64,000 nt of DNA from NCBI RefSeq assembly GCF_003367355.1, contig NZ_CP031413.1:434001-498000 (forward strand). The letters are read 5' to 3'. Made by a program: the position numbers and the translations under genes. Source of the stretch: Lysobacter sp. TY2-98. Lineage in GTDB: Bacteria; Pseudomonadota; Gammaproteobacteria; Xanthomonadales; Xanthomonadaceae. The notes below the pieces were generated by a model. That model did not search any database. It was given only the letters and a program-made list of their open reading frames with translations, and was not told the DNA's origin. Of the stretch, positions 37,783-64,000 are shown one piece after another; position 1 is the stretch's first letter; the number at the start of each line of letters is the position of its first letter.

Positions 37783-37844
37783 ACTCAACGCGTCGTGCAT
37801 GCGTCGTCCCGCGAAGCGGTATCGGCTTGCACGAATCGTCAGGC
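37783..37844 (-). repeat. Degenerate terminal attC
   Basis: 62 bases; minus-strand R'' GCCTGAC and R' GTTGAGT. One arm keeps CGCGAAGCGG and CGGCTTG, the other arm is scrambled, though GTGCA/TGCAC can pair. Marks the decayed distal end of the array. Confidence 0.6.
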
Positions 37845-38210
37845 CTAAGGCGGCGCAATCACGAACGACAACAGATGCGCCGAGCCCTGAACGGCCTGGG
37901 CGCCCATGCTCTCATACAGGCGGATCGCACGAACGTTGGCGGGCCGAACGCCCTGAATGACGAACTCGCGACAGCCCTTCTCGCGTGCTTTGGCTCGAAG
38001 CTGCTCAATCACCCGCGTGCCGTAGCCCTTTGATCGGTGCGCTTTGTCCACTTCAATCTTTTCCAGAACGAACCGCTCCCCAGGCTCGAACCAGCCATAG
38101 GCCCGCCCGGCGAACTTGCCATCGATGAGCGCCTCGATGACGTAGTGCCGGCGTTGCCCACTTTCCTCAAAGCGCCAGTCCGCTTGGAGATGAAGCTCGT
38201 TCGTTTTCAA
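37845..38210 (-). CDS. GNAT-family N-acetyltransferase (last cassette)
   Basis: 121 residues, GNAT fold: LEKIEVDKAHRSKGYGTRVI supplies beta4 and the acetyl-CoA pyrophosphate loop (R-S-K-G-Y-G-T), followed by FVIQGVRPANVRAIRLYESM, the usual beta5/alpha4 end. The acceptor is unknown. Its TAG stop abuts the degenerate attC at 37783-37844 and its start lies 30 bases from the second degenerate attC at 38240. It is therefore read as the terminal, probably fixed cassette. Confidence 0.85.
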   Translation of the reverse strand: MKTNELHLQADWRFEESGQRRHYVIEALIDGKFAGRAYGWFEPGERFVLEKIEVDKAHRSKGYGTRVIEQLRAKAREKGCREFVIQGVRPANVRAIRLYESMGAQAVQGSAHLLSFVIAPP

Positions 38211-38239
38211 ATTCGTTTGCCTTGATGATGGCTGCTGAA

Positions 38240-38298
38240 ACCTAACAGCTGAGTTCAGCCGCTCCGCGAAGCGGTGTCGGCTGGGCCAATTGTGAGGC
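38240..38298 (-). repeat. Degenerate attC of the LtrA cassette
   Basis: 59 bases; minus R'' GCCTCAC, R' GTTAGGT. The stem is preserved (CCGCTCCGC / GCGGTGTCGG) but several positions differ from the array consensus. Confidence 0.75.
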
Positions 38299-38359
38299 CA
38301 GAGCTCACGCCCGCCGAGCTATACCTCGGTGGCCGTGTCCGACGACCTACGGTGGCCGC

Positions 38360-39490
38360 ATGAAGGACCTCAAATATTTCGATGCGCACCGGCGGGCGAC
38401 CTGGCTGGAGCTGTTCTTCGACCTGATCTTCGTCGTCGCCCTGACCGATGTCAGCGAACTCCTGAGCGAAGCGCACGAACGCCACATCACGGCGCAGCAG
38501 TTCCTGCACTTCGTGCTGATGTTCCTGCCGCTTTGGTGGATCTGGGCGGGCCACACGATCTACGCCAACCGCTTCGACACCGACAGCCGCCAGCACCGCC
38601 TGTCGACACTGCTGATCATGTTCCTGCTGATCGTGATCTCCGCGCAGGTGTCGGCCGGCGTCCAAGACCATTACGCGCTGGCCGTGGCCTGCTACTGCGG
38701 GGCGCGGCTGATCATCGCCGGGATGTATTTCGCTTCCAAGCGCAAGCACCACGACCGGGGTGGCATCGCAACAACGGTGGGCACCGTGTTCGCGGTCGGC
38801 GCCGCGATCAGCCTTTGCTCGGTCCTGCTGGAGCCGCCGTGGAGCTACCTGATCTTCTATGCCGGGATCGTGTTCGACATGGCGGCCCTGGTGCTGCTGA
38901 ACCGGCGGCTGCACGTCGTGCCGGCGCACACGCCGCACCTGATCGAGCGGGTCGGCCTGCTGACCATCATCATGCTGGGCGAATCGGTGATTGGTATCTC
39001 CGCGGCGCTGGCGGGCATCGCCTGGGATCGCTCCAACGTCATCGCCGCGGTCAGCGGCTTCGTCATGGTGTCGGCCATCTGGTGGATCTACTACGACAGC
39101 TTCCACCTGCTGGAACACCGCAAGCTGGCGACCGGGCACTCGATCCTCTATTCGCACTTCTTCCTGTTCATCGGCCTGGCGATCCTGGCCTCGCTGATCC
39201 GGCACGCGATCCTGGACGACCTCGACCCGCGCGACTTCCGCGAGCTGGCCGCCGCAGGCACCGTGCTGTTCTTCCTGGGCAAGCAATACGGCTACTACAT
39301 GGAGGTGCCCGAGCTGCGGCCTTACCTGCTGACCAACACCGCGGCCGTGTTCGCCCTGACGGCCGTCGTGTTGGTGTTGCCGCTCGGGCTCGACAGCATG
39401 CTGGTGGGCCTCACAGCGACGATGATCTGTTATGTGCTGCTCAACTTGCGCTACCGCCACCTGGTGGGCGGCGGGCAGGCGCCCGCCTGA
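38360..39490 (+). CDS. Low-temperature requirement protein A (LtrA) family, reversed cassette gene
   Basis: 376 residues with about ten membrane helices. N-terminal signature RATWLELFFDLIFVVAL is diagnostic of LtrA; GLLTIIMLGESVIGI and the helix-rich C-terminus agree. The family is of unknown biochemical function, named for growth at low temperature in Listeria. This is the only cassette gene in the window on the plus strand, against the array direction. At about 1.3 kb the cassette is the longest here, and its codon use is chromosome-like (GC-rich third positions). Transcription from a distant Pc cannot express it; it needs its own promoter. Confidence 0.88.
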   Translation: MKDLKYFDAHRRATWLELFFDLIFVVALTDVSELLSEAHERHITAQQFLHFVLMFLPLWWIWAGHTIYANRFDTDSRQHRLSTLLIMFLLIVISAQVSAGVQDHYALAVACYCGARLIIAGMYFASKRKHHDRGGIATTVGTVFAVGAAISLCSVLLEPPWSYLIFYAGIVFDMAALVLLNRRLHVVPAHTPHLIERVGLLTIIMLGESVIGISAALAGIAWDRSNVIAAVSGFVMVSAIWWIYYDSFHLLEHRKLATGHSILYSHFFLFIGLAILASLIRHAILDDLDPRDFRELAAAGTVLFFLGKQYGYYMEVPELRPYLLTNTAAVFALTAVVLVLPLGLDSMLVGLTATMICYVLLNLRYRHLVGGGQAPA

Positions 39491-39560
39491 GCCGCTGCCT
39501 GCGGTCTTGTCAGATGTGGAAGGATTTATTGATCGTGCGGTGCATACGTATCGGCGGTGC

Positions 39561-39619
39561 GCCTGACACCTGAGTTAGCCGCGCCGCAAAGCGGCGTGGG
39601 CTTGGACGAATTGTTAGGC
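39561..39619 (-). repeat. attC of the Imm70-like cassette
   Basis: 59 bases (one A missing in the TTAAG arm); R'' GCCTAAC, R' GTCAGGC, with GCAAAGC replacing GCGAAGC in the loop. Confidence 0.9.
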
Positions 39620-40115
39620 CTTGCCCCGGAACAACTCAGGCAACGACCCATAGGTAAAGATCTCGACGGCGTGGCCGAATTCGACTGCACTTTCTACCGA
39701 CCAGATTAGACCGCCCCGCAGAAGGTTCTGCCCGTTGATGGTGACGAAGAACTCCGCGGCGTTCTGCGCATTTGCTCCGAGTGTGTAGTGCGGACTCGGC
39801 GGCAAATGTGGCTTTTCGATATCCCACACAACCCGAGACACCGGGAGGGCGGTGAGTTCCCGATCGATCGTGTGCAACTCGTCGAGTGCGGCGCGAGATT
39901 CGTCGGACGGCAGGAAGCCTTGGTAGAGGTTGCCCATACACACGGAATCGTGAGCCCCAACCGGCAGGTTCCAGATTGGCGGCGACGGTGGAGAAGAGCC
40001 CGTACAGCACCGTATTGGCCCCGACTTCTGTAACGACGCGTTCGGCGCGAATGGCTACGCGATCCGGAAGCGATGCAGCCGGCCGGTTTTTGCGCAGGAA
40101 GCTAAATAGTTTCAT
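39614..40115 (-). pseudogene. Imm70-like immunity protein gene with frameshift
   Basis: Two overlapping frames together spell one protein of about 166 residues. The first (from ATG 40115) reads MKLFSFLRKNRPAA to LFSTVAANLEPAGWGSRF; the second continues VCMGNLYQGFLPSDESRAAL, ELTALPVSRVVWDIEKPHL, FFVTINGQNLLRGG to the stop at 39614. Joined, it resembles the Imm70 family (FFSTI..LE..WGS.FP..LYQG...VWDIE). The switch between frames lies near 39951-39956, after TTCC. Stop TAA lies in the attC. Without correction the product ends after a scrambled tail. Whether this is a real lesion or a base-call error cannot be told here. Confidence 0.6.
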
Positions 40116-40120
40116 GCAAG

Positions 40121-40180
40121 GCCTAACACCTGAGTTAAGCCGCGCCGCGAAGCGGCGTCGGCTTGGACGAATTGTCAGGC
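40121..40180 (-). repeat. attC of the DUF7079-like cassette
   Basis: 60 bases; R'' GCCTGAC, R' GTTAGGC. Confidence 0.95.
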
Positions 40181-40516
40181 GTGTGAGCCGAGGTGTTCAA
40201 GCACCTTCTCCCAGCATCCCTCGACTTCTTGGACGATCCAAGCCGGACCAACTTTACGCGCGGGGCCTTCCGACGGCCGGATGTGCGCGACTAGCCATTC
40301 CCGTGGTCGTCCAGCCCACTCACCCGCCACAGACTGCGGGTTCCAGTAAAGAACCGGGAAGACTTCGTTCCACAGCACGCCTTCCGCCTCATCCCGGGTC
40401 GCGCCCGATCGGCGCACGACTCGAGCTGCGTGCTGAAACGTTATTTCGTCGAGCTCCGTATCCAGGAAGAAATCGGAAAACGCTTCCCACAGGTCCATCC
40501 GAGCACGTGCATCCAT
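40175..40516 (-). CDS. DUF7079-like small acidic protein
   Basis: 113 residues, acidic, helical. DLWEAFSDFFLDTELDE, EGVLWNEVFPVLYWN and SVAGEWAGRPREWL match what I recall of the DUF7079 family, common in proteobacterial accessory regions and integrons and often near immunity-type genes. No function is established. The TGA stop is formed by the attC (GCCTGAC). The ATG lies 20 bases from the upstream attC, with a second ATG six codons in. Confidence 0.6.
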   Translation of the reverse strand: MDARARMDLWEAFSDFFLDTELDEITFQHAARVVRRSGATRDEAEGVLWNEVFPVLYWNPQSVAGEWAGRPREWLVAHIRPSEGPARKVGPAWIVQEVEGCWEKVLEHLGSHA

Positions 40517-40532
40517 CGCTGCTTCCCGAACC

Positions 40533-40592
40533 GCCTAACACCTGAGTTAAGCCGCGCCGCAAAGCGGCGTCGGCTTGGACGAATTGTTAGGC
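40533..40592 (-). repeat. attC of the zinc-ribbon membrane protein cassette
   Basis: 60 bases; R'' GCCTAAC, R' GTTAGGC; loop GCAAAGC. Confidence 0.95.
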
Positions 40593-40910
40593 GTCATCCG
40601 CCCACCTTGGCAACTTGCTCAGCCTGCCGAAATAGTAGGCGAGAAAAGCGCCAGCGACGCCGCCGAGGACTGCCGCAAGGGTGAGGGCGACCGTGCACAT
40701 TAGCGCGCTGGCCGGGTGCAGCTTGAACCAGTGATTTGTAGCAAACGCTGCTGCGATTAGCGGCAAAAGAGAGAGGAGCCAGACCGCCACCCCGACGATG
40801 TTCTTTTGGCCGCATGCGGTGCACGTAATCGGATAAGACGTGCCGAAGAAGTGCCAAGGGCTAAGCTCAATTGGCGCTTTGCACGACGCACATGCGAAGA
40901 ACTTTGCCAT
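40587..40910 (-). CDS. Zinc-ribbon-like two-helix membrane protein
   Basis: 107 residues. N-terminal Cys pairs CASC (7-10) and CTAC (30-33) form a probable zinc ribbon, followed by two hydrophobic segments at about 38-58 and 70-93 and a short charged tail. No family assigned. The ATG lies exactly 9 bases after attC-borne AGGTG; the stop TAA is the attC GCCTAAC. Confidence 0.7.
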   Translation of the reverse strand: MAKFFACASCKAPIELSPWHFFGTSYPITCTACGQKNIVGVAVWLLSLLPLIAAAFATNHWFKLHPASALMCTVALTLAAVLGGVAGAFLAYYFGRLSKLPRWADDA

Positions 40911-40913
40911 GAC

Positions 40914-40973
40914 GCCTAACACCTGAGTTAAGCCGCGCCGCGAAGCGGCGTCGGCTTGGACGAATTGTTAGGC
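40914..40973 (-). repeat. attC of the lipoprotein cassette at 40975
   Basis: 60 bases; R'' GCCTAAC, R' GTTAGGC. Confidence 0.97.
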
Positions 40974-40974
40974 G

Positions 40975-41478
40975 TTACCCATTGATCTGGTTAACGCACG
41001 CCGGTCTGACTTGTTTGGCTGTGGTGACAGGCTCGTACTTGCCTGCGACATCGCGCAGGACGGCAACCCGGCACATTGAGCCGTTCTGACTGAAGGCCAC
41101 TCGATAGCTCGCGCCCGACTCGGGAACGAAGCTTTCGGTCAGGGTGCATGTCTCGGCATCGGTGATTCCGATCGCGCCCGCCTGATACGCAAAAGTAACG
41201 ACCGCCGGGTTGCCCGCTTGCATGGTGCGGCTGACCCCGGAGTGCGGATCGCCTTTGCCTTGCACCGCTGTGGTGGTGAATGTTGCCAGACGCGTGCCGT
41301 TGGGGCTGGCTTCGCAACTCTCGGAGGCGAAATTCTGCACGAGCACCCAGGCACCCATGGGAATGCCTGACGCCGAGAAAGTGACAGTGGCCGTCTCGCC
41401 CGACGTGGGCGATGCGTAGTGCGTGGCACAGCCGGTTAGGAGAGCCAATCCGGTCGCGAATACTGCTTTTCTCATCAC
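40975..41478 (-). CDS. Putative lipoprotein
   Basis: 167 residues. Lipobox LLTGC (Cys17) after a short hydrophobic leader (MMRKAVFATGLA). The mature part is Ser/Thr/Gly-rich with four more Cys (SESCEASPN, AETCTLTES, GSMCRVAV and VRPACV), so probably two disulfides in a beta-rich periplasmic fold. Function unknown. Start at 41478 or 41475; CAAACTTTCAGGGGGAGTG gives AGGGGGAGTG before ATG. Confidence 0.7.
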   Translation of the reverse strand: MMRKAVFATGLALLTGCATHYASPTSGETATVTFSASGIPMGAWVLVQNFASESCEASPNGTRLATFTTTAVQGKGDPHSGVSRTMQAGNPAVVTFAYQAGAIGITDAETCTLTESFVPESGASYRVAFSQNGSMCRVAVLRDVAGKYEPVTTAKQVRPACVNQING

Positions 41479-41501
41479 TCCCCCTGAAAGTTTGATGTAA
41501 C

Positions 41502-41561
41502 GCCTAACACCTGAGTTAAGCCGCGCCGCGAAGCGGCGTCGGCTTGGACGAATTGTTAGGC
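41502..41561 (-). repeat. attC of the membrane protein cassette at 41568
   Basis: 60 bases; R'' GCCTAAC, R' GTTAGGC. Confidence 0.97.
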
Positions 41562-41567
41562 GGCAGC

Positions 41568-41927
41568 TTACTCAGCGAACCAGTGCGGTGGGTAGTAGCT
41601 CAGGAAAATTGCCCGCAGCGCCGCGCGAAAGGAGATTTGGCTGAGCGCAGCGAGGGCGACACAGAGCACGAAGGCGCCGAGAGCTATGCCGAGCAGGCCG
41701 CCACCCAGCAGGACCGCGAGCGCGAGAAATAGGAATTGGACGCTGCCCGGCTCAGACCCGAGAGGTGCGCCGGGAGTTAAACCCCGCGCTAGCTGCGCTT
41801 CGTGCGCCCATGCAACCGCGGGCCAGAAGCCGAGAAGCAGACCAGCGAGTAGGAACGCGGCGATCAGATGCCGATAGCCCGCCCTCAGACGGTAGATATC
41901 CAGCGAACGGGACCAAAGTGAGCTCAC
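41568..41927 (-). CDS. Small membrane protein, unknown
   Basis: 119 residues. Two hydrophobic regions: HLIAAFLLAGLLLGFWPAVA (20-40, could also be a signal anchor with AWA cleavage) and FLFLALAVLLGGGLLGIALG (66-95, long enough for a hairpin). A Pro/Gly loop separates them and the tail ends YYPPHWFAE. ATG follows the attC by 8 bases, so AGGTG of the neighbouring attC could serve as ribosome-binding site. Confidence 0.6.
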   Translation of the reverse strand: MSSLWSRSLDIYRLRAGYRHLIAAFLLAGLLLGFWPAVAWAHEAQLARGLTPGAPLGSEPGSVQFLFLALAVLLGGGLLGIALGAFVLCVALAALSQISFRAALRAIFLSYYPPHWFAE

Positions 41928-41934
41928 ATCTGCC

Positions 41935-41994
41935 GCCTAACACCTGAGTTAAGCCGCGCCGCGAAGCGGCGTCGGCTTGGACGAATTGTTAGGC
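41935..41994 (-). repeat. attC of the Excalibur cassette
   Basis: 60 bases; R'' GCCTAAC, R' GTTAGGC. Confidence 0.97.
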
Positions 41995-42001
41995 CTTGCG
42001 C

Positions 42002-42289
42002 TCAGCGACACCACTGCTGCTCGCAAGGCACACCATCGCCGTCCCCATCCATTTGTGTATTGGGGCAATGTTGCGAAAAAAATGTTGCTTCCTCGCACGA
42101 ATGCATCTGAGGACAACGCGTTCGACCATTGCAGGCGTAGCGCGAATCCTTCTTTTCTTGGGCTGACGTGACTGAATCCGCAGCCGGCGCTGCGGTTGGC
42201 GCATGGGTAGCGAAACGGCCGCGTTTGATTTCGCGATAGCCATAGGCCGCTACGACAGCGAGTAAGAGTACGAGCAGCATATTCTTCAA
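42002..42289 (-). CDS. Excalibur calcium-binding domain protein
   Basis: 95 residues: N-terminal membrane anchor (MLLVLLLAVVAAYGY), a linker, and a C-terminal Excalibur domain with RYACNGRTRCPQM, CEEATFF and NTQMDGDGDGVPCE, the D-x-D-x-D-G-x-x-C-E calcium loop. Such domains are extracellular, often attached to nucleases, but here it stands alone. Six Cys are present. The start lies 24 bases from the attC. Confidence 0.82.
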   Translation of the reverse strand: MKNMLLVLLLAVVAAYGYREIKRGRFATHAPTAAPAADSVTSAQEKKDSRYACNGRTRCPQMHSCEEATFFSQHCPNTQMDGDGDGVPCEQQWCR

Positions 42290-42313
42290 AGTGCTTCACT
42301 CCTGCCTCGCACG

Positions 42314-42373
42314 GCCTAACACCTGAGTTAAGCCGCGCCGCGAAGCGGCGTCGGCTTGGACGAATTGTTAGGC
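42314..42373 (-). repeat. attC of ORF-less cassette 1
   Basis: 60 bases; R'' GCCTAAC, R' GTTAGGC. Confidence 0.97.
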
Positions 42374-42707
42374 CAAGCTTGAACCCGCCGAGAACCGTGA
42401 GCAACCCGGCGCGAAATGACGTCCGAAGCGAGAGCCGCGGTCTGGAGTCTGGACACGCGACGGCGAGCTTTTCCCGCGTTCGTCCGAAGCCGAGGCGCAT
42501 TCCGCCCGCGAGCTGGAGATGCGGTTCGGGGCAAATCGGTACTTTAGGGAGAATCAGTATCCGACCGCGCACGACTCGGAGAGTGAGGAAACGGTCGCGG
42601 CAGAGCGAGCGCGGCGAGACGCTTCCGGAGCGAGCTGTGCGACGCGATGTAGTTGCCGAAGCAGCAGGCGTCACATTGCGATGCCGCGCTTACGACAACC
42701 GACCGAG
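42374..42707 (-). other. ORF-less cassette 1 (homologous to the one at 57986)
   Basis: 334 bases with no credible coding frame on either strand. It aligns with 57986-58318 over its length: shared ends (CCAAGCTTGAAC next to attC, CAACCGACCGAG at the other side), shared core CGGTACTTTAGGGAGAATCA (42537-42556), and interrupted matches elsewhere. Conservation without a reading frame suggests an RNA or regulatory element. Confidence 0.7.
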
Positions 42708-42767
42708 GCCTAACACCTGAGTTAAGCCGCGCCGCGAAGCGGCGTCGGCTTGGACGAATTGTTAGCG
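42708..42767 (-). repeat. attC of the membrane protein cassette at 42722
   Basis: 60 bases; R'' CGCTAAC, R' GTTAGGC. Confidence 0.96.
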
Positions 42768-43162
42768 CCCAGCCGTGACCAAGGCCAGCGTGGTTGTGCG
42801 AAGAAATGGGTGGCAAGCCCACTGAAGACGCCGTACGCCAGTATCAGCCAGTCACCGGCGTACGCCAGAAACACGAGCCCCGGCGCTGCCCCGATAACGC
42901 CTGCGATGAAATATGAAGCACGACCCGCACGCTGCGCGGCTGCATACAGAGGAGCACCGTAAAGGAGCGCTGGTAACAGGCCGAGCACAAAGGCGTATAA
43001 GGCGAACAGCAGCCACAGGGAAAAGGCGGCGGCTACCAAAGAAAAAGTGTTTGGCATAAATCGGGCGAGCGCCAACAGCCCGCTCGCAAACACACTGCCC
43101 GTAGCCAGCCCACCCACCGTGGGAGCAACCAGTCTTGCCCAGCTGCGGAGGAACTTGCCCAT
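42722..43162 (-). CDS. Four-helix membrane protein with attC-encoded tail
   Basis: 146 residues, about four helices (GGLATGSVFASGLLALA, LVAAAFSLWLLFALYAF, YFIAGVIGAAPGLVF, WLILAYGVFSG). The last 13 residues (NNSSKPTPLRGAA) are read from the attC, ending at its internal TAA. ATG at 43162 is 9 bases after AGGTG of the upstream attC. Family unknown. Confidence 0.65.
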   Translation of the reverse strand: MGKFLRSWARLVAPTVGGLATGSVFASGLLALARFMPNTFSLVAAAFSLWLLFALYAFVLGLLPALLYGAPLYAAAQRAGRASYFIAGVIGAAPGLVFLAYAGDWLILAYGVFSGLATHFFAQPRWPWSRLGANNSSKPTPLRGAA

Positions 43163-43165
43163 GGG

Positions 43166-43225
43166 CGCTAACACCTGAGTTAAGCCGCGCCGCGAAGCGG
43201 CGTCGGCTTGGACGAATTGTTAGGC
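43166..43225 (-). repeat. attC of ORF-less cassette 2
   Basis: 60 bases; R'' GCCTAAC, R' GTTAGCG. Confidence 0.96.
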
Positions 43226-43513
43226 CACGCCCCGGATTCGAGAACTGCGCGAGCGAAACCTAACTGCCAGCCGCGATAGTACGACGCCCCGAGATAAGGA
43301 TGCGAAGGCCGGCGCACGGCCGAAGTTGACAGTGGCGAGCGCGACGTGTGGACGCGGCTGCTACACGAAAGCCACGCGGCGGAGCGAACCAGCGCAGCGG
43401 GGACGACAGATGCGAGAAGCTCGCATGGTGTGGTTGCCGGAAGCCGATCAGCTGGCGAGAGACAAGGCCGGCTTTGCCAACGATTTGCACGCTGCTTGGA
43501 ATCGCAGTGCGTG
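43226..43513 (-). other. ORF-less cassette 2
   Basis: 288 bases; no minus-strand frame of useful length independent of the attC. The only plus frame (43326-43526) runs into the attC and has no ribosome-binding site. No similarity to cassette 1 that I can see. It contains a possible hairpin GCCGGCGCACGGCC near 43311. Confidence 0.6.
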
Positions 43514-43573
43514 GCCTAACACCTGAGTTAAGCCGCGCCGCGAAGCGGCGTCGGCTTGGACGAATTGTTAGGC
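43514..43573 (-). repeat. attC of the membrane protein cassette at 43528
   Basis: 60 bases; R'' GCCTAAC, R' GTTAGGC. Confidence 0.97.
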
Positions 43574-43866
43574 CGCGTACGGGTGACGAGCAACCACCCA
43601 AGGCAAGCCGGCACACCAACAGCATATCCAGCACAGAACAGGATCCCGGCTGTAGCCCAGTCTATGACTCGCTCACCTGTAGCCAGCGCCCATGCTGAGA
43701 CGGCTATAGCGAAAACAGCACCAACGAACGTGCCTGCGGCTGCGGCGCGCACTGCGAAACCTCGCCAGTGCGCGGAAAGTGCGAGGACGACGTTCGCAAG
43801 TAGGACGATCGGGCTCACGAGGGACAAGCCGACGATGAATATGACAAGAAGCAAGCCAGCACTCAT
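43528..43866 (-). CDS. Three-helix membrane protein with attC-encoded tail
   Basis: 112 residues: helices at about 3-27, 38-62 and 71-94, then TRTR and the attC-encoded NNSSKPTPLRGAA. No charged loop or motif suggests a function. ATG at 43866, 10 bases after AGGTG of the upstream attC, is the only reasonable start. Confidence 0.65.
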   Translation of the reverse strand: MSAGLLLVIFIVGLSLVSPIVLLANVVLALSAHWRGFAVRAAAAGTFVGAVFAIAVSAWALATGERVIDWATAGILFCAGYAVGVPACLGWLLVTRTRPNNSSKPTPLRGAA

Positions 43867-43870
43867 AGCG

Positions 43871-43930
43871 GCCTAACACCTGAGTTAAGCCGCGCCGCGA
43901 AGCGGCGTCGGCTTGGACGAATTGTTAGGC
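43871..43930 (-). repeat. attC of the DUF7336-like cassette
   Basis: 60 bases; R'' GCCTAAC, R' GTTAGGC. Confidence 0.97.
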
Positions 43931-43931
43931 C

Positions 43932-44183: not shown

Positions 44184-44186
44184 GAG

Positions 44187-55482: not shown

Positions 55483-55908
55483 TGCCGGCCGATATGCGAC
55501 GACGAGCAACCCGGAACCCACTAGTACGCAGCCAAGAATAACGCGCGGTGTGATCTGTTCCTTGAGTATGAGCCAGGCCAGCAGAACCGCGACGATGAAG
55601 CTCGCTTTATCAATAAGCGCGATGGTTGAGACCTCGCCTTGCTTTAGGGCCTTGTAGTAGAAGATCCACGACAAAGACGTGGTGACGCCGGAAACACCAA
55701 GCCAGAAGAGATTGTGCGGAGCCAGAGACTTCAGCTCCGCAGGCGCGACGAACAGCGCCGCGAAACCGATGACGAATACCGCGACGAACATGGTTCGAAC
55801 AGCGAGCCCAAGTTCGCCCGAAATTCCGGCAAGGCCCATCTTGGCGATCACGGAAGTGAAGCCAGCGAAGATCATGGAGATGACGGCGTATGTAACCCAC
55901 TTGTCCAT
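55477..55908 (-). CDS. Small EamA-family transporter, copy 2
   Basis: Identical in every base I compared to 50110-50541, including upstream GAGGAG and the flanking attC sequences (offset 5367 bases). No substitutions means a recent cassette duplication or gene conversion. Both copies keep the module intact, so both should be functional if transcribed. Confidence 0.87.
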   Translation of the reverse strand: MDKWVTYAVISMIFAGFTSVIAKMGLAGISGELGLAVRTMFVAVFVIGFAALFVAPAELKSLAPHNLFWLGVSGVTTSLSWIFYYKALKQGEVSTIALIDKASFIVAVLLAWLILKEQITPRVILGCVLVGSGLLVVAYRPAT

Positions 55909-55923
55909 GCTCTCTCCTCGGCA

Positions 55924-57921: not shown

Positions 57922-57925
57922 AGCC

Positions 57926-57985
57926 CTCTAACACCTGAGTTAAGCCGCGCCGCGAAGCGGCGTCGGCTTGGACGAATTGTTAGGC
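57926..57985 (-). repeat. attC of ORF-less cassette 3
   Basis: 60 bases; R'' GCCTAAC, R' GTTAGAG. Confidence 0.97.
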
Positions 57986-58318: not shown

Positions 58319-58378
58319 GCCTAACACCTGAGTTAAGCCGCGCCGCGAAGCGGCGTCGGCTTGGACGAATTGTTAGGC
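58319..58378 (-). repeat. attC of the cassette at 58333
   Basis: 60 bases; R'' GCCTAAC, R' GTTAGGC. Confidence 0.97.
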
Positions 58379-58773
58379 GCCAGTCCAGCGACGCCCTGCA
58401 GCAAAGCAATATAGCGGGCCGGCTGCATTTCATAGAAGTCGATTGCGACGACGTAGGCCTTGCCACAGTTGCCACACCGAGCAGTCGAAAAGTATCCGGA
58501 GCGACCATTCGGGAATGCCGCCCAGGCAAGCGCCTTAGGCCCGACGAACTCCAGCGTGCACGAAAAGGTAGAGGCGATGTGCCGCTGGTCTTCGAGCGGT
58601 AACGACCTAAACCATTCGGTGCCAGCGCTGACCGCCGACAGTACATTGCGTTCAACGGTGTGGCCGCACGCTTCGCATTGGAAGGCGAGGCATGCATGTT
58701 TCTCGCGCATGCCGTCATGGAACGGATGACGGTCTTGCGAGTAGACGAGAAGTGGCGGCTCGAGATCTATCAT
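58333..58773 (-). CDS. Zinc-ribbon-like protein with attC-encoded tail
   Basis: 146 residues, cytosolic. Cys pairs CEAC (33-36) and CGNC (100-103), with nearby His residues, suggest a split zinc ribbon; GYFSTARCGNCGKAYVVAID looks like the second knuckle. Tail NNSSKPTPLRGAA. Could bind nucleic acid or protein; no family known. ATG 13 bases after AGGTG. Confidence 0.68.
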   Translation of the reverse strand: MIDLEPPLLVYSQDRHPFHDGMREKHACLAFQCEACGHTVERNVLSAVSAGTEWFRSLPLEDQRHIASTFSCTLEFVGPKALAWAAFPNGRSGYFSTARCGNCGKAYVVAIDFYEMQPARYIALLQGVAGLAPNNSSKPTPLRGAA

Positions 58774-58780
58774 GGCTGGC

Positions 58781-58840
58781 GCCTAACACCTGAGTTAAGC
58801 CGCGCCGCGAAGCGGCGTCGGCTTGGACGAATTGTTAGGT
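58781..58840 (-). repeat. attC of the cassette at 58835
   Basis: 60 bases; R'' ACCTAAC, R' GTTAGGC. Confidence 0.97.
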
Positions 58841-59182
58841 TGCAGAGGAATGCAGAGCTGCAACCAGCGATGCCGCCGATGCTAGCGTGATTGGCTCGGT
58901 GGTGATGGGATTTGCGAGCTGGAACACCGCGCGCTCAACAGGCGCTCCCGCAAGAGCGATGTCTTCCCGACACTCGATAGCATTAGCCCAGTCCTCGACG
59001 TCTTCGGCAGCGATCTCGCCAGCGCAGAAACGCGCGAGCACACCTGCAATGTGCTCGGGGAGCAGCGTGACTAGCTCCACCTCTGAGTCCCACGGGTATC
59101 GCGCGAGCCGAGCACCCACAGCCGCCAGCGGTTGCCGGAGAGTGATGAGATCTTCTAGTGCGGCGCGCCTTGAATCTTCCAC
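58835..59182 (-). CDS. Small helical acidic hypothetical protein
   Basis: 115 residues from GTG at 59182. LARYPWDSEVELVTLLPEHI, AGVLARFCAGEIAAEDVEDW, ANAIECREDIALAG and AVFQLANPITTEPIT match a widespread uncharacterised family with a conserved A.DVE.WAN..E.REDI core. Cytosolic, unknown. TAA stop in attC (CAACCTAAC). Confidence 0.65.
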   Translation of the reverse strand: MEDSRRAALEDLITLRQPLAAVGARLARYPWDSEVELVTLLPEHIAGVLARFCAGEIAAEDVEDWANAIECREDIALAGAPVERAVFQLANPITTEPITLASAASLVAALHSSAT

Positions 59183-59186
59183 TGCA

Positions 59187-59246
59187 ACCTAACACCTGAG
59201 TTAAGCCGCGCCGCGAAGCGGCGTCGGCTTGAACGAATTGTTAGGC
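59187..59246 (-). repeat. attC of GFA cassette, copy 1
   Basis: 60 bases; R'' GCCTAAC, R' GTTAGGT; TTGAACG instead of TTGGACG in the outer arm. Confidence 0.97.
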
Positions 59247-59292
59247 GGCACCTGCGATATTGCGGGCGCCACCCGCGGGAAGCTGCACTGTT

Positions 59293-59673
59293 TCAATCCA
59301 GGAATTTCCACGTATCGGCGCCATCGAATCGCCGGACAGTGACTGACGCTAGCAGCGCGGGTTCAAAGTTGCGAAGGTTCACCCCGTGGCGAGCGCCGGG
59401 CGTGGGTTCGATAGGTTCCCAGTGGGTGGCGATGCCGCAGTTCTTGCAGCGGAAATTGCTCAGGCTGCGATCACCCCACACGTAGCTCTCCGTATTCTCC
59501 GGATGCCCTTGGATAGAGACGGTGCCGAGCTCGTAATAGGCCCAGATGCCTCCCGTGCGCCTGCACAAGGAGCAATTGCAACTCGTGGCGGTTTCTGGCG
59601 CCGCCGGAAGGCTGAGGCGCACAGCGCCACAGTGGCACGAACCACTCAGCGAAAGAGGCTGTTCGTTGCTCAC
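59293..59673 (-). CDS. GFA-family (CENP-V-like) zinc protein, copy 1
   Basis: 126 residues. Cys ligands CHC (13-15), CNCSLC (32-37) and CKNC are those of the glutathione-dependent formaldehyde-activating fold; LCRRTGG and FRCKNCGIATHW complete it. Most cassette members are probably small zinc hydrolases or binding proteins, not true Gfa. GTG start at 59673 preceded by AAAGGAGACGCGTCGC. Nearly identical to 60635-61015. Confidence 0.85.
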   Translation of the reverse strand: MSNEQPLSLSGSCHCGAVRLSLPAAPETATSCNCSLCRRTGGIWAYYELGTVSIQGHPENTESYVWGDRSLSNFRCKNCGIATHWEPIEPTPGARHGVNLRNFEPALLASVTVRRFDGADTWKFLD

Positions 59674-59697
59674 GCGACGCGTCTCCTTTCCTGTGCC

Positions 59698-59757
59698 GCC
59701 TAACACCTGAGTTAAGCCGCGCCGCGAAGCAGCGTCGGCTTGGACGAATTGTTAGGT
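59698..59757 (-). repeat. attC of the lipoprotein cassette at 59764
   Basis: 60 bases; R'' ACCTAAC, R' GTTAGGC; one stem substitution (GCAGCG). Confidence 0.96.
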
Positions 59758-59763
59758 GGCGAT

Positions 59764-60195
59764 TTAGAGATCTTCAATAGTCCGCTCCAAGTCCCGCTGC
59801 ATGTGATCCAAGGCCGGTGCCACAGAGCGAACCAGTGCTTCGCCGCGAACATTGCCGCGGACGATCCAAACCTCACGATCCTCGTGGAGGACGGCGGTGA
59901 CGCCCTCGGCATTCTGCAATGCCTGAGTCACTGCCTCGTGGAGCATGGACTGGGTTGGCTCTTCGCGCGCGAATTCCGCCGCGTTCACGAAGACTTGCCA
60001 CTCTTCTTGAGCGCCTTCTAGCCTACTCGCGCTAACACCGAGCACGTCCTCCTCGGTTGTAACGCGGTGCCACTCTTCAAGAACCGAGCTGTCAGCCGGC
60101 GCGATCTTCTCGACCTTAATGTCTCCGCAAGACGACGCAGCCGCGCACCCGGCAAAAAGTAGAGGCACTAGCAATGAAGCGAAAAATCTAAGCAT
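59764..60195 (-). CDS. Putative lipoprotein, unknown
   Basis: 143 residues: lipobox region LLFAGCAAASSC (Cys17), then an acidic helical domain: VLEEWHRVTTEEDVLGVSAS, RLEGAQEEWQVFVNAAEFAR, MLHEAVTQALQNAEGVTAVL and a C-terminal HEDREVWIVRGNV segment. Unknown family. ATG 60195; a longer frame begins in the attC. Confidence 0.62.
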   Translation of the reverse strand: MLRFFASLLVPLLFAGCAAASSCGDIKVEKIAPADSSVLEEWHRVTTEEDVLGVSASRLEGAQEEWQVFVNAAEFAREEPTQSMLHEAVTQALQNAEGVTAVLHEDREVWIVRGNVRGEALVRSVAPALDHMQRDLERTIEDL

Positions 60196-60219
60196 GTCGA
60201 GCGAAGTACTCCTTGAGCC

Positions 60220-60279
60220 ACCTAACACCTGAGTTGACCCGCGCCGCGAAGCGGCGTCGGGTTGAACGAGTTGTTAGAG
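60220..60279 (-). repeat. Variant attC of ORF-less cassette 4
   Basis: 60 bases; R'' CTCTAAC, R' GTTAGGT. Outer stem changed on both arms (GACCCG / CGGGTT instead of AAGCCG / CGGCTT), pairing retained. Same subtype at 62903. Confidence 0.95.
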
Positions 60280-60528
60280 CCCACACGGAGATGCCGAGCC
60301 GGCTCCAACTTATGAGCGAAGAATGCCACGGCCGGCGACCGCGAGTGGCTCGCGCACGCTGGCAGCTAAGGGCGGGGCGCGGAAATGGACGAGTGCTAGA
60401 GCGAGGCACGCGGCTGGCGATAGGGATGCGGCACGCAAGCCGTGATGGAGCAGGGCGCCGCTGGGTGGAGCGAGAAGCGTCGAGCCGCCAGACAACCACT
60501 ACGACCTCTAAGAAGAGTCGGTGGTGGG
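60280..60528 (-). other. ORF-less cassette 4
   Basis: 249 bases, no supported gene. A minus frame from 60499 crosses into the next cassette through the open attC frame and is Arg/Ser/Pro-rich; I treat it as spurious. Its 5' end (TTAGCG) and own R'' (CTCTAAC) are not complementary. Confidence 0.6.
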
Positions 60529-60588
60529 CGCTAACACCTGAGTTAAGCCGCGCCGCGAAGCGGCGTCGGCTTGAACGAATTGTTAGGC
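60529..60588 (-). repeat. attC of GFA cassette, copy 2
   Basis: 60 bases; R'' GCCTAAC, R' GTTAGCG; shares the TTGAACG variant with the site at 59187. Confidence 0.96.
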
Positions 60589-60634
60589 GGCACCTGCGAT
60601 ATTGCGAGCGCCACCCGCGGGAAGCTGCATTGTT

Positions 60635-61015
60635 TCAATCCAGGAATTTCCACGTATCGGCGCCATCGAATCTCCGGACAGTGACTGACGCTAGCAGCGC
60701 GGGTTCAAAGTTGCGAAGGTTCACCCCGTGGCGAGCGCCGGGCGTGGGTTCGATAGGTTCCCAGTGGGTGGCGATGCCGCAGTTCTTGCAGCGGAAATTG
60801 CTCAGGCTGCGATCACCCCACACGTAGCTCTCCGTATTCTCCGGATGCCCTTGGATAGAGACGGTGCCGAGCTCGTAATAGGCCCAGATGCCTCCCGTGC
60901 GCCTGCACAAGGAGCAATTGCAACTCGTGGCGGTTTCTGGCGCCGCCGGAAGGCTGAGGCGCACAGCGCCACAGTGGCACGAACCACTCAGCGAAAGAGG
61001 CTGTTCGTTGCTCAC
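60635..61015 (-). CDS. GFA-family (CENP-V-like) zinc protein, copy 2
   Basis: Same 126-residue protein as at 59293, offset by 1342 bases; the coding sequence differs only by a silent change near the 3' end, with a few more differences between stop and attC. Zinc ligands intact, same GTG start context. Confidence 0.87.
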   Translation of the reverse strand: MSNEQPLSLSGSCHCGAVRLSLPAAPETATSCNCSLCRRTGGIWAYYELGTVSIQGHPENTESYVWGDRSLSNFRCKNCGIATHWEPIEPTPGARHGVNLRNFEPALLASVTVRRFDGADTWKFLD

Positions 61016-61039
61016 GCGACGCGTCTCCTTTCCTGTGCC

Positions 61040-61099
61040 GCCTAACACCTGAGTTAAGCCGTGCCGCGAAGCGGCATCGGCTTGGACGAATTGTTAGAT
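61040..61099 (-). repeat. attC with compensatory stem change
   Basis: 60 bases; R'' ATCTAAC, R' GTTAGGC. Inner stem GTGCCGC / GCGGCAT replaces GCGCCGC / GCGGCGT: C-G to T-A on both arms. Confidence 0.95.
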
Positions 61100-61101
61100 G
61101 A

Positions 61102-61686
61102 CTACCAGAGATCCCCGTCGTATAGCCGAACACTTCTAGGCTGGCTCCGAGGAAGCAACTCTATTTCGTGATCAGTGTATTTCTGCGTAGTCCGTATATG
61201 CGTCGCTATACGGCCGTCAATTGACCATGGCTTCTTGTGTTCCTTCCCGAGCTTTTCTTCAATGAGAAAGCAGTTGGCCATGGCGAAGCTGGAAGCTTTT
61301 ATAACAATGGCCCGAGGCTGATCGGCAATCTGACCGTCGAATATAGCCGGGCGGAAATGATCTAGCTCAGGAAATGTCTTCCCTTTAACCGCAATGGCGT
61401 AGCACCTTCCTATTCTGTCGATCTTCTTCTTAAGCTCGTTCGCCTCTCGAATAATGCCGTCTGCATTCGTTAAGTGTTCATCTGCATACGCAAGAAGAAG
61501 GACGGAATCATTCCACAGGTATGTGTGAGCGTGGAGAGGCATCATGTGCGATGCGTAATTGGAAGCGAGCGCGTGCAATTCGCGCATCTTTTGTGCTGCT
61601 GAGCCGTCGTCCTTCGATGCCAAGGACTTAATCCCAATAACATCGATTAGTGTCACAACGCAACGCCGCCAATCTGCCATAGTCAT
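61102..61686 (-). CDS. Hypothetical protein, possible nucleotidyl-cyclase-like fold
   Basis: 194 residues and the most A+T-rich gene in the window. WRRCVVTLIDVIGIKSLASK and LWNDSVLLLAYAD resemble the two acidic beta-strands of class III cyclase/GGDEF-like palm domains, and AFAVKGKTFPE-type strands follow (CYAIAVKGKTFPELDHF). This is a weak structural guess. The start ATG at 61686 overlaps the upstream attC core (GTTAGATG); ATG at 61680 is an alternative. Confidence 0.55.
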   Translation of the reverse strand: MTMADWRRCVVTLIDVIGIKSLASKDDGSAAQKMRELHALASNYASHMMPLHAHTYLWNDSVLLLAYADEHLTNADGIIREANELKKKIDRIGRCYAIAVKGKTFPELDHFRPAIFDGQIADQPRAIVIKASSFAMANCFLIEEKLGKEHKKPWSIDGRIATHIRTTQKYTDHEIELLPRSQPRSVRLYDGDLW

Positions 61687-61744
61687 CTAACACCTGAGTT
61701 AAGCCGCGCCGCGAAGCGGCGTCGGCTTGGACGAATTGTTAGCG
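61685..61744 (-). repeat. attC of the cassette at 61746
   Basis: 60 bases; R'' CGCTAAC, R' GTTAGAT. Confidence 0.96.
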
Positions 61745-61745
61745 C

Positions 61746-62120
61746 TCAGCCTACAACGGCGCCGAGCTTAAAGATCGGCAGGTAAAGCGCAATGACGCAA
61801 GCCGGCACGAGGACGAACAGGCTGACGACGCCCAAGATGAGCGCCCGGCGTGCACGGCTGAGAGGCGCGCCGCGAAACGCGATTGCTGCAACGGCAGCGG
61901 GCACCAGCCACAACCAGTTGTGGTGCGCGAAAAGGAGTTTGGTTAGAGCCGGAAGATCAGCCCCGAACGCCGCAAGTGCATCGCGAAAATGCCCGACGAC
62001 AAGAGAGGACACCGCGGCAGGAAACGCAGACAGTACGACTCCGACGAAGACGAGCCCGAGAGACGGCGCGGGTGCCGTCGCGGCTGGAAAGGTTTCGGGG
62101 GAGCGATACGGATTGTTCAT
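61746..62120 (-). CDS. Three-helix membrane protein, unknown
   Basis: 124 residues: Pro-rich leader (NNPYRSPETFPAATAPAPS, as in many small membrane proteins with an NPY motif), helices near 21-42, 63-84 and 94-115. ATG 9 bases after AGGTG. Unknown function. Confidence 0.62.
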   Translation of the reverse strand: MNNPYRSPETFPAATAPAPSLGLVFVGVVLSAFPAAVSSLVVGHFRDALAAFGADLPALTKLLFAHHNWLWLVPAAVAAIAFRGAPLSRARRALILGVVSLFVLVPACVIALYLPIFKLGAVVG

Positions 62121-62123
62121 GAG

Positions 62124-62183
62124 CGCTAACACCTGAGTTAAGCCGCGCCGCGAAGCGGCGTCGGCTTGGACGAATCGTTAGGG
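62124..62183 (-). repeat. attC of the cassette at 62178
   Basis: 60 bases; R'' CCCTAAC, R' GTTAGCG; CGAATCG in place of CGAATTG. Confidence 0.96.
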
Positions 62184-62522
62184 GGCAAGCTGACAGACCG
62201 CCACGGGCAATGGCCCGTACACCTTTTGTGTTCCCGCAAAGCCGCCCCGCTCGATGACATATGCCGATCGCGTTTCGGTACTGAGAACAAGCCAGTGCGC
62301 ATAGCCATCCGCCACGTTGCCCTGATCTGACAACAGGCGGCCTGAGCGTTCGGCGAGCTCTCCGGGGAGCGACGCCGCTACCGGCCAAGCTTGATTCACA
62401 CCGGTAGGGTGAACGAATGGCTGCAACCGGGCCGCTGTGCACTCGAGATACGGCGACGGCTCCGGGGACCTGCCAAGCTGGGTCGCCAAAACGAGTGCCA
62501 CAAGTGCGTTGATCATATCCAT
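62178..62522 (-). CDS. Secreted hypothetical protein
   Basis: 114 residues: short signal-like leader (MINALVALVLATQLG), then YLECTAARLQPFVHPTGVNQ, HWLVLSTETRSAYVIERGGF and VYGPLPVAVCQLAP with two Cys. Periplasmic; role unknown. ATG 9 bases after AGGTG, stop TAA from attC. Confidence 0.6.
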   Translation of the reverse strand: MDMINALVALVLATQLGRSPEPSPYLECTAARLQPFVHPTGVNQAWPVAASLPGELAERSGRLLSDQGNVADGYAHWLVLSTETRSAYVIERGGFAGTQKVYGPLPVAVCQLAP

Positions 62523-62525
62523 GCC

Positions 62526-62585
62526 CCCTAACACCTGAGTTAAGCCGCGCCGCGAAGCGGCGTCGGCTTGGACGAATTGTTAGGC
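62526..62585 (-). repeat. attC of the cassette at 62580
   Basis: 60 bases; R'' GCCTAAC, R' GTTAGGG. Confidence 0.97.
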
Positions 62586-62897
62586 CCCACCGATTCTGGA
62601 GCCTTCGTAGGCCGCTGCCCACGCCCGCCAACGCAGCTTGCTGGACAGCAACAGATACATCGGCGGAAGTATCGCTGGCACTAGGCCGAACACCCAAGGG
62701 CTAAGCCCGAAATCGCGTGCCGCGCGGGACATGTACCAACAGGCCGCCCAGTGAAATGGCAGGAATACAGCGAACGACGTAGCGGCGCCGGAATGCGCGA
62801 CAAGAATGACAGCAATGACTGCGAGCCAGCCAAGTAGCCACAGACGCGCACCGAGGATCAGCGGTTTGCTCTGAATTCGAAGACTGGAAAGCTTCAT
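62580..62897 (-). CDS. Three-helix membrane protein, unknown
   Basis: 105 residues: LWLLGWLAVIAVILVAHSG, FAVFLPFHWAACWYMSRAA, WVFGLVPAILPPMYLLL; basic loops (SKLRWRAWAAAYEGSRIG) at the C-terminus. ATG at 62897 is 11 bases after attC AGGTG (here the attC reads CCGGTG); a longer frame exists only by reading through the attC. Confidence 0.62.
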   Translation of the reverse strand: MKLSSLRIQSKPLILGARLWLLGWLAVIAVILVAHSGAATSFAVFLPFHWAACWYMSRAARDFGLSPWVFGLVPAILPPMYLLLSSKLRWRAWAAAYEGSRIGGA

Positions 62898-62902
62898 GTG
62901 GG

Positions 62903-62962
62903 GCCTAACACCGGAGTTGACCCGCGCCGCGAAGCGGCGTCGGGTTGAACGACTAGTTAGGC
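62903..62962 (-). repeat. Variant attC of ORF-less cassette 5
   Basis: 60 bases; R'' GCCTAAC, R' GTTAGGC; the same GACCCG / CGGGTT stem variant as at 60220, plus CTAGTT and CCGGAG differences. Confidence 0.95.
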
Positions 62963-63343
62963 GCAACGATACCGCCGCGGAGCACGATCTAGAAGCCACG
63001 ATAGAGGAGGGCGCCGCGACGGTGCCTACCTGAGCCTTCCGGGGCAGAGAGGCCCGCAACAGAAATCGTTGGCGCCAGCGACTTGGCGGCAGAGGCGATC
63101 ACGGAGCAAGAAGGTATCGGGCGCTGCGATCGTGCCTGCCACTGATGCAAGCCGCGAAGGCGCCGACTGACAACTGGGCGCGATCGGAAGGAGCCGAAGA
63201 CAGCTTGGAATCGGTGAGCTGCGCGCGAGAGCGGGCAGCGATGCGATGAGCTTGAGATGCATGGCCGCGCGGGAGACATGAGTGAAGCCGCGTGCAACGC
63301 AGGCGGCGCAACGCGCCGAACTCTCAAAGCATTTTCAGCTGAT
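62963..63343 (-). other. ORF-less cassette 5
   Basis: 381 bases. A minus frame at 62989-63327 is open but its composition (Arg/Ser/Ala/Pro) and lack of a ribosome-binding site argue against coding. No clear similarity to the other ORF-less cassettes. Confidence 0.55.
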
Positions 63344-63403
63344 GCCTAACACCTGAGTTAAGCCGCGCCGCGAAGCGGCGTCGGCTTGGACGAATTGTTA
63401 GGT
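63344..63403 (-). repeat. attC of the cassette at 63418
   Basis: 60 bases; R'' ACCTAAC, R' GTTAGGC. Confidence 0.97.
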
Positions 63404-63417
63404 GCCACGCCTGACAC

Positions 63418-63945
63418 CTACCGAATTAAGCCAGCCAAAGTTTCGCGAAGATCCCAGGATCGCTCGTACACCTCTTCCGCGAATTTCAACAAATCAATCT
63501 TGCAGCGCCACCGCTTGCCGCCCAAAAAGCCATTGAGCTCCACGGACGACTCCTTTACCGGGTTACGGAATGGCTCCGTGCCTTCGTAAGTTGAGTGGTA
63601 CACGGCGTAAGAAAACGTCAGATGATCAGCATGGATAAGCTTGTTCGCGCATTCGCGCAAGGTCCTTCTCCCATGACCTTCGAGCATCTCGATGCAGGTA
63701 GTAGGGAGATCCGCCGGGTCATCGAGCATGTATCCGCTAGCTCTATCAAGGAGCAGGCGAAAGTTGACGGCCAGTTCAATAGATTTTGTAGAAAGCGTGT
63801 CTTCGAAGTGTTCGTCAAAGTCCACATAGAGTGTTGGGCGGCCTTTGCCAGAAACTGTTGCCGCGACGTGGTAATTGGCGTGTATCGCCGTCGCGAGTTC
63901 GATGCAAAGCTTTTGAATACCTGAAACGCTATGACCTAGCTCCAT
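63418..63945 (-). CDS. Hypothetical helical protein, possibly HEPN-like
   Basis: 175 residues, mostly helical, no signal. LCIELATAIHANYHVAATVS, RPTLYVDFDEHFEDTLSTKS and TLRECANKLIHADHLTFSYA; the segment RECANKLIHAD resembles the basic helix of HEPN-type domains (N-K-x-x-H) found in RNases and abortive-infection proteins, only a hint. Related uncharacterised proteins occur in accessory DNA. ATG 9 bases after AGGTG. Confidence 0.55.
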   Translation of the reverse strand: MELGHSVSGIQKLCIELATAIHANYHVAATVSGKGRPTLYVDFDEHFEDTLSTKSIELAVNFRLLLDRASGYMLDDPADLPTTCIEMLEGHGRRTLRECANKLIHADHLTFSYAVYHSTYEGTEPFRNPVKESSVELNGFLGGKRWRCKIDLLKFAEEVYERSWDLRETLAGLIR

Positions 63946-63948
63946 GGC

Positions 63949-64000
63949 ACCTAACACCTGAGTTAAGCCGCGCCGCGAAGCGGCGTCGGCTTGGACGAAT
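63949..64000 (-). repeat. attC cut by the window edge
   Basis: 52 of about 60 bases; R' GTTAGGT present, R'' lies beyond 64000. Shows the array continues to the right. Confidence 0.95.

What the first reader, a model, noticed from the sequence alone, without database searches (positions are those of the whole stretch)
37783..64000. Large sedentary integron array read right to left, integrase outside the window
Seen: 56 attC sites with almost identical 60-base sequence separate 55 short cassettes, nearly all coding on the minus strand. Known: an attC ending in GTTRRRY lies 3' of its gene, and a run of near-identical attCs indicates a resident integron that builds its own cassettes. The young, platform-proximal end must be at higher coordinates. 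The cassette products are overwhelmingly unknown, so the array is a reservoir of undescribed small proteins.
Basis: partly seen in the sequence, partly recalled or inferred. Interest (0 to 1): 0.85.

Follow-up and report, generated by a model that had tools for sequence, protein, structure and literature searches.

The report
Giant gene-cassette library with private ends
A Lysobacter-like bacterium carries a chromosomal library of about 95 small gene cassettes joined by nearly identical 60-base sites, and each cassette has its own matching pair of short ends that are predicted to pair only while it is a free circle, which likely favours storing genes over losing them.

Summary
The finding is real and larger than reported. 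A covariance model built only from attC sites of other genera finds 95 attC sites in the whole 3.16-Mb genome, all on one strand in one block (window 38240 to 83874, running 20 kb past the window), ending at an attI-like site and an intact integron integrase gene: a sedentary chromosomal integron. New points: (1) the inner 54 bases are identical in 76 of 91 well-kept sites, yet each cassette has its own ~8-bp terminal inverted repeat beside that core. These ends match within a cassette, not across a site. The edge is sharp and recurs over 384 Xanthomonadaceae cassettes. Pairing beyond the R box was noted in print in 2009. (2) Start codons cluster 3-5 bases after attC; 50 of 89 minus-strand genes stop at one of two TAA codons in attC. 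(3) attC bottom strands lie on the lagging-strand template, where published sedentary integrons had at most 22 cassettes; no PADLOC match and no toxin-antitoxin family was found among longest ORFs. (4) The attC is identical to that of the clinical aadB cassette, whose ends obey the same rule. That private ends bias capture over excision is inferred, untested.

The parts
37783..37844 (-). Very degenerate attC-like site at the far (old) end; marginal
   Evidence: E 0.0087 with a model from other genera; 38 of 60 to consensus
37848..38210 (-). GNAT acetyltransferase gene at the far edge; its homologue sits alone beside intI in the 'empty' platform of G005, so it may be flank or an ancestral last cassette
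   Evidence: Pfam PF00583 66 bits; 74% over 362 bases at L166:16173-16534
38240..38298 (-). Worn attC, far end of the array
   Evidence: 50.6 bits, E 3.7e-10
38300..39559 (+). Longest interval (1260 bp), LtrA-like gene coded against the array
   Evidence: Pfam PF06772 239 bits
39561..39619 (-). Worn attC
   Evidence: 63.3 bits
40121..64000 (-). Near-uniform part of the cassette array inside the window (53 well-kept attC sites, the last cut by the window end); continues outside the window to coordinate 83874, with the attI-like site at about 84272-84301 and intI at about 84873-85853 on the plus strand
   Evidence: integrase
40914..40973 (-). Example of the consensus attC (top strand on minus; recombining bottom strand on plus)
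   Evidence: 88.2 bits; 60 of 60 identical to the aadB cassette attC
40590..40597 (.). Example private end (GGCGTCAT) of the cassette 40593-40913
   Evidence: read; complementary to 40909-40916
40909..40916 (.). Partner private end (ATGACGCC) of the same cassette
   Evidence: read
40590..40910 (-). Example cassette gene: ATG 3 bases after the upstream attC, stop in the R-box TAA of its own attC
43528..43866 (-). Example gene that runs through its attC to the inner TAA and ends in the shared tail PNNSSKPTPLRGAA
50116..50556 (-). EamA-like cassette, identical copy at 55483-55923
   Evidence: 100% over 441 bases; Pfam

Best explanation
This is a large sedentary chromosomal integron of about 95 cassettes with an intact integrase gene, in which each cassette joins a near-invariant attC core to its own matching pair of ~8-bp ends that are predicted to pair only in the free circle and so likely favour capture over excision. 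Shown: 95 attC on one strand at one locus; an intact IntI gene and an attI-like site at the high-coordinate end; private ends that match within a cassette and not across a site; [quoted passage not shown] Inferred: IntI inserts circles at attI by recombining the folded bottom strand (established for integrons in general, not tested here); the private arm completes a duplex half-site of about 11 bp outward from the crossover (the Xer-type half-site length is recalled); in the array each attC is a hybrid of two cassettes' ends, so the arm is mostly unpaired and excision would be weaker. Also inferred: attC supplies a ribosome-binding segment (AGGTG, TTAGG) to the next gene and stop codons to the one before, so neighbours may be translated in a coupled way.
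For: attC and platform. Inner 54 bases identical in 76 of 91 well-kept sites; outer three bases match within a cassette in 85 of 88 (32 of 35 non-GGC) but across a site in 4 of 58 non-GGC. Positions 1-5 outside attC complementary in 78, 71, 76, 75, 53 of 81 unique cassettes, shuffle means 36, 23, 55, 35, 21; position 6 at chance, 20 against 17. Same edge in G007, G003, G004, G027 and over 384 unique family cassettes: 350, 341, 345, 297, 227, then 101 against 95. Predicted folding -28.0 kcal/mol as circle, -21.5 in the array, -21.5 with random ends; circle more stable in 81 of 88, equal in 4, less in 3. In homologous cassettes whose genes are 65-90% identical, 136 of 144 compared end positions are the same at both ends and 2 are compensatory (24 of 25 pairs). 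ATG exactly 3, 4, 5 bases after attC in 19, 9, 9 of 85 unique cassettes against 0.85 per offset. Orientation.
Against: No experiment. Pairing beyond the R box to 9-11 nt was already described (PMC2727003, passages), and unmatched R-box bases in arrays are noted in PMC5371416 (passages), so ends may be an ordinary folding requirement without effect on stability. Ends show no decay with distance from attI (p 0.67). A strand-specific mismatch signature was inconclusive (10 against 6). 22 of 88 cassettes have at least one mismatch in the first seven pairs. In 85 filtered cassettes of other groups (of 108) the extension fades after about position 3. No sigma-70-like promoter or LexA-like pattern was found at intI, so integrase expression is unknown. 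Homologous pairs are not independent; 6 of 144 positions changed without keeping both pairs.
Confidence: 0.6

Rival explanations
1. An ordinary sedentary integron that is large because its integrase is rarely or never expressed; the private ends are only the hairpin requirement at insertion and do not affect stability.
For: No promoter-like or LexA-like match at intI; pairing beyond the R box is known.
Against: The integrase frame is intact; sister species share the platform but only 7 of 96 intervals are found in nine G007 contigs, so arrays turn over; ends are kept in diverged cassettes.
Confidence: 0.4
2. The private ends are fossils of how cassettes are made: a copying step writes the same ~8 bases at both ends, and nothing selects for them later.
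For: Sharp edge: a perfect run of 8 goes on to 9 in 30 of 161, near chance; the edge is the same in five genomes.
Against: Ends stay matched although the genes have diverged by 10-35%; two positions changed on both ends together in one pair; end bases are strongly G/C, for example 231 of 244 at position 1.
Confidence: 0.2
3. The near-identical attC cores reflect a recent local burst or gene conversion within this one array.
For: 76 of 91 identical cores; no wear gradient; a few identical cassette copies.
Against: The same 54 bases occur exactly at 93 of the 100 listed G007 sites (107 counted), whose flank is about 81% identical, and within one mismatch in 73 of 395 family genomes.
Confidence: 0.15

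Closest known systems
Vibrio cholerae superintegron (sedentary chromosomal integron with VCR sites)
   Same: Integrase, attI and a very large homogeneous attC array of mostly unknown small genes
   Different: 60-bp Xanthomonadales-type attC instead of ~120 bp; bottom strands on the lagging template (leading in Vibrio, PMC5371416 and PMC11023631, passages); no toxin-antitoxin family found among longest ORFs
Xanthomonas chromosomal integrons at ilvD
   Same: Same family, near-related integrase type, attC bottom strand on the lagging template in the five cases of PMC5371416
   Different: Those had at most 22 cassettes and sit at ilvD (PMC12444791, passages); here about 95, beside ORFs that look like a sigma-54 regulator and flagellar genes (read by eye, not searched)
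Lysobacter oculi chromosomal integron (PMC8352920, passages)
   Same: Lysobacter, Xanthomonadales-like attC, holds cassettes also known from mobile integrons (catB3, qacI)
   Different: Array size not stated in the passages seen; no resistance cassette was named here by Pfam over cut-off, apart from a general GNAT family hit
aadB cassette of class 1 mobile integrons
   Same: attC identical over 60 of 60 bases in the best record, ATG at offset 3, ends GGCCGCAT/ATGCGGCC, stop in the R box
   Different: Mobile, on plasmids; no aadB gene was found in this array by the Pfam scans

Membership tests
Integron | IntI-type tyrosine recombinase with the IntI insert | tested here: met
   TIGR02249 488.5 bits over cut-off 265; aligned to 2A3V over residues 9-325
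Integron | attC sites with conserved hairpin structure | tested here: met
   95 sites with a model from other genera; structure supported by covariation, 0 of 500 shuffles as high on the main score
Integron | attI next to intI | tested here: inconclusive
   attI-like core GAGAATCGGTG/TTAGGC shared with G007 at the array end; recombination not tested
Integron | Pc promoter | tested here: inconclusive
   No sigma-70-like match in L009:3200-4000; other promoter types not covered
Sedentary chromosomal integron | Large homogeneous array at a fixed chromosomal place shared by relatives | tested here: met
   About 95 cassettes; intI and right flank together in G004, G005, G006, G007
Sedentary chromosomal integron (large, Vibrio type) | attC bottom strand on the leading-strand template | tested here: not met
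   dnaA at 2.779 Mb, GC skew, octamer polarity
Sedentary chromosomal integron (large, Vibrio type) | Toxin-antitoxin cassettes | tested here: not met
   No such family in Pfam (90 of 96 products) or NCBIfam (95 of 96); only the longest ORF of each interval was scanned, and NCBIfam lists 25 families at most (21 found)
Xanthomonadales-like attC clade | Sequence and structure of the attC type | tested here: met
   Model from other Xanthomonadaceae genera; identity to the aadB attC, which PMC8352920 assigns to Xanthomonadales

The most novel reading that the evidence does not exclude
Cassette ends act as a state sensor. A private ~8-bp arm, matched only within its own cassette, makes the recombination hairpin complete when the cassette is free and incomplete once it is stored between strangers. 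This one-way bias lets an array with its recombining strands on the lagging template grow to about 95 cassettes without toxin-antitoxin guards. The same attC also serves as start signal for the next gene and stop signal for the one before, so any cassette can be slotted in and be read.
Probability: 0.3. Interest if true: 0.8.

Novelty: new variant of a known kind. Interest (0 to 1): 0.62.

Why it matters
How very large cassette arrays stay stable is an open question. Two published stabilisers, bottom strands on the leading template and toxin-antitoxin cassettes, were not found by the tests made here, yet the array holds about 95 cassettes beside an intact integrase gene. It is a natural counter-example to the size rule for inverse orientation (at most 22, PMC5371416) and offers a simple, testable sequence feature that tells 'free' from 'stored' sites. 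The exact attC and end-rule match also places the clinical aadB cassette within this cassette style, in line with its published assignment to Xanthomonadales.

Tried and rejected
Rfam at gathering thresholds found nothing in the window. Host codon usage did not tell the coding strand of cassettes well, so the longest ORF was used. A strand-specific mismatch signature (bottom-strand T.G against C.A) was inconclusive, 10 against 6. A gradient of wear along the array was not seen. A gammaproteobacterial dif pattern gave no match, so the terminus rests on GC skew and KOPS-like octamers (motif recalled). Generic attC finders on Pseudomonas and Rhodocyclaceae loci gave few or noisy sites; 85 of 108 cassettes of other groups were kept after filtering. 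The attC-coded tail as a degron was considered and dropped: one-mismatch attC variants in relatives change its residues (read by eye). Paper searches for the tail peptide found 0 papers; searches for attC-borne translation signals gave listings in which I saw none on an array-wide start or stop rule, and I read passages of two of them only. These searches cover one open-access library.
Full report
What is there. The window is C1:434001-498000 of a single-contig 3,156,619-base genome. The array runs on past the window: with the next 32 kb 96 attC-like sites are found, all in one orientation. A covariance model built only from 43 attC sites of other genera of the family (96.9% of cells paired, 8 pairs with changes on both sides, 0 of 500 shuffles as high on either) finds 95 sites in the whole genome, all within C1:472240-517874 and on one strand. 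The 96th, at window 37783, is marginal. That makes about 95 cassettes in 46 kb (median interval 396 bp over 96 intervals), at G+C 0.60 against 0.67-0.69 in the immediate flanks.

Platform. An integron integrase lies at about window 84.9-85.9 kb on the plus strand, its exact start uncertain: TIGR02249 at 488.5 bits, 304 bits to the V. cholerae IntI structure 2A3V, aligned through the IntI insert and the conserved C-terminal motifs. Between it and the first cassette is an attI-like core shared with a sister species. No sigma-70-like promoter and no simple LexA-like pattern was found. The five closest integrases in named genomes are 87-93% identical, all labelled Lysobacter. The right flank and intI occur together in all four. 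In G005 the left flank ends about 900 bp before intI; between them lies only a homologue of the GNAT gene at window 37848-38210, and no attC-like site was found in the 30 kb taken there or within one mismatch in its genome. This is a nearly empty platform at the same place. G007 holds 107 sites within 3 mismatches of the core, but only 7 of this array's 96 intervals have a match in the nine G007 contigs taken.

Core and ends. Of 91 well-kept sites (of 96), 76 have the same inner 54 bases. The outer three bases vary, and they match between the two ends of one cassette (85 of 88; 32 of 35 when not GGC) but not across one attC (4 of 58 non-GGC). The match goes on outside the attC: positions 1-5 are complementary in 78, 71, 76, 75 and 53 of 81 unique cassettes, against shuffle means of 36, 23, 55, 35 and 21, and position 6 is at chance (20; mean 17). 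G007, G003, G004 and G027 show the same edge. Over 384 unique Xanthomonadaceae cassettes the counts are 350, 341, 345, 297, 227, then 101 against 95; the commonest perfect run, counted from the RRY, is 8 (131 of 384). In 85 of 108 cassettes of other groups, kept after filtering, the extension is weaker and fades after about position 3. Bouvier et al. 2009 (PMC2727003, passages) already state that pairing can extend beyond the 7-nt R boxes to 9-11 nt in all; counted that way, 235 of 384 here reach 11 or more and 161 reach 12 or more, with a sharp edge.

What the ends may do. In the array each attC joins the ends of two different cassettes. Predicted folding of the bottom strand gives a mean of -28.0 kcal/mol for circle sites and -21.5 for array sites; random ends give -21.5; the circle form is more stable in 81 of 88, equal in 4, less stable in 3 (88 of 95 intervals had both sites well kept). 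In homologous cassettes 136 of 144 compared positions are unchanged at both ends and 2 are compensatory, although the genes are 65-90% identical; 6 changed otherwise (24 of 25 pairs; the one above 97% was left out; pairs are not independent). I read this as selection for pairing in the free state, and so for repeated passage through it. A bias of capture over excision follows as an inference. Against it: ends show no decay with distance from attI, and 22 of 88 cassettes have some mismatch in the first seven pairs.

Orientation. dnaA lies at 2.779 Mb. GC skew is positive in all samples from 320 kb to 1.04 Mb and negative in 8 of 9 from 1.2 to 2.5 Mb; it is near zero or mixed from 2.6 Mb through 160 kb. 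KOPS-like octamers agree: 5 to 0 in the window flanks, 14 to 3 in the samples up to 1.04 Mb, 3 to 23 from 1.2 to 2.5 Mb. Forks therefore cross the array in the plus direction, and the plus strand, the attC bottom strand, is the lagging-strand template. The aadB match confirms that the minus strand is the top strand. In the 30 sedentary integrons of Loot et al. 2017 (PMC5371416, passages) the five with this orientation, all Xanthomonas, had at most 22 cassettes. Work on an inverted V. cholerae array (PMC11023631, passages) ties that orientation to more excision, integrase inactivation and toxin-antitoxin effects.

Genes. By longest ORF 89 of 96 intervals code on the minus strand. Their stops fall before attC (35), in the R-box TAA (29), in an inner TAA after the shared tail PNNSSKPTPLRGAA (19) or ANNSSKPTPLRGAA (2), or elsewhere in attC (4). 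ATG lies exactly 3 bases after attC in 19 of 85 unique cassettes, and at 4 and 5 in 9 each, against 0.85 per offset (p about 2e-20 and 2e-7); over the family 55, 26 and 37 of 384 against 4.3. The 85 cassettes of other groups show no such peak (1 each). attC thus likely supplies a ribosome-binding segment in this family. attC hairpins, short ORFs in attC and coupling are known influences on cassette translation (PMC8876359, PMC4670013, passages). Pfam was run on 90 of 96 products; left out were the gene across the window edge, two near-copies and three others. 14 pass a cut-off: GNAT, LtrA, DUF7079, DUF6869, EamA twice, YetF, GFA twice, Rce1-like, 4-fold beta flower, pentapeptide, a hydrolase and an HSP70 fragment. 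PADLOC gave 0 of 95. NCBIfam gave 21 families over 95 members, mostly weak, among them the phage-defence effector HalA in one member at E 1.2e-4.

Link to clinical cassettes. The 60-base site matches the attC of the aadB cassette base for base in a Sphingobium plasmid and over 58 bases in other listed records (capped at 5000 records). That cassette also has ATG at offset 3, ends GGCCGCAT/ATGCGGCC and a stop in the R box. Ghaly et al. 2021 (PMC8352920, abstract and passages) had already assigned aadB and 18 other cassettes to Xanthomonadales. The same core, within one mismatch, occurs in 73 of 395 family genomes and 25 of 54 genera, so this species is not singled out as the donor.

Verdict. Identity as a sedentary integron is secure. 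The private ends and attC as translational punctuation are well founded as anatomy and untested as mechanism. A search for Cognatilysobacter with integron gave 0 papers (that genus name for these Lysobacter species is recalled), and one for integron, Lysobacter, gene cassettes and attC together gave 4 (listing).

Noticed in passing
window:40914-40973 and the other consensus sites: The attC is identical to that of the clinical aadB cassette, and that cassette obeys the same end and start rules.
   Followed up: partly
cassette ends, 244 cassettes pooled from five genomes: Where the start codon's T falls at position 4 or 5 of the private arm, the partner base is C (18 of 34 and 28 of 69) about as often as the matching A (15 and 28). 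Unexplained; it may avoid a false ATG at the gene end.
   Followed up: no
L008:10279-10390 (window coordinate 74279-74390, outside the window): An attC of 112 bases that looks like the standard site with about 50 extra bases inside.
   Followed up: no
window:38300-39559: The longest interval holds an LtrA gene coded against the array direction, between two worn attC sites.
   Followed up: no
L008:19015-19452 (window coordinate 83015-83452, outside the window): A cassette codes a 146-residue protein that matches only part of HSP70.
   Followed up: no
L158-L160 (G003:C1:1405468 and 1514567): One genome placed in the same genus has two intI genes about 109 kb apart in opposite orientation, with attC sites near both.
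   Followed up: no
L149-L157 (G007): The G007 array of at least 107 sites is broken over many short contigs, several of which begin or end at an attC; draft assemblies likely hide the size of such arrays.
   Followed up: partly
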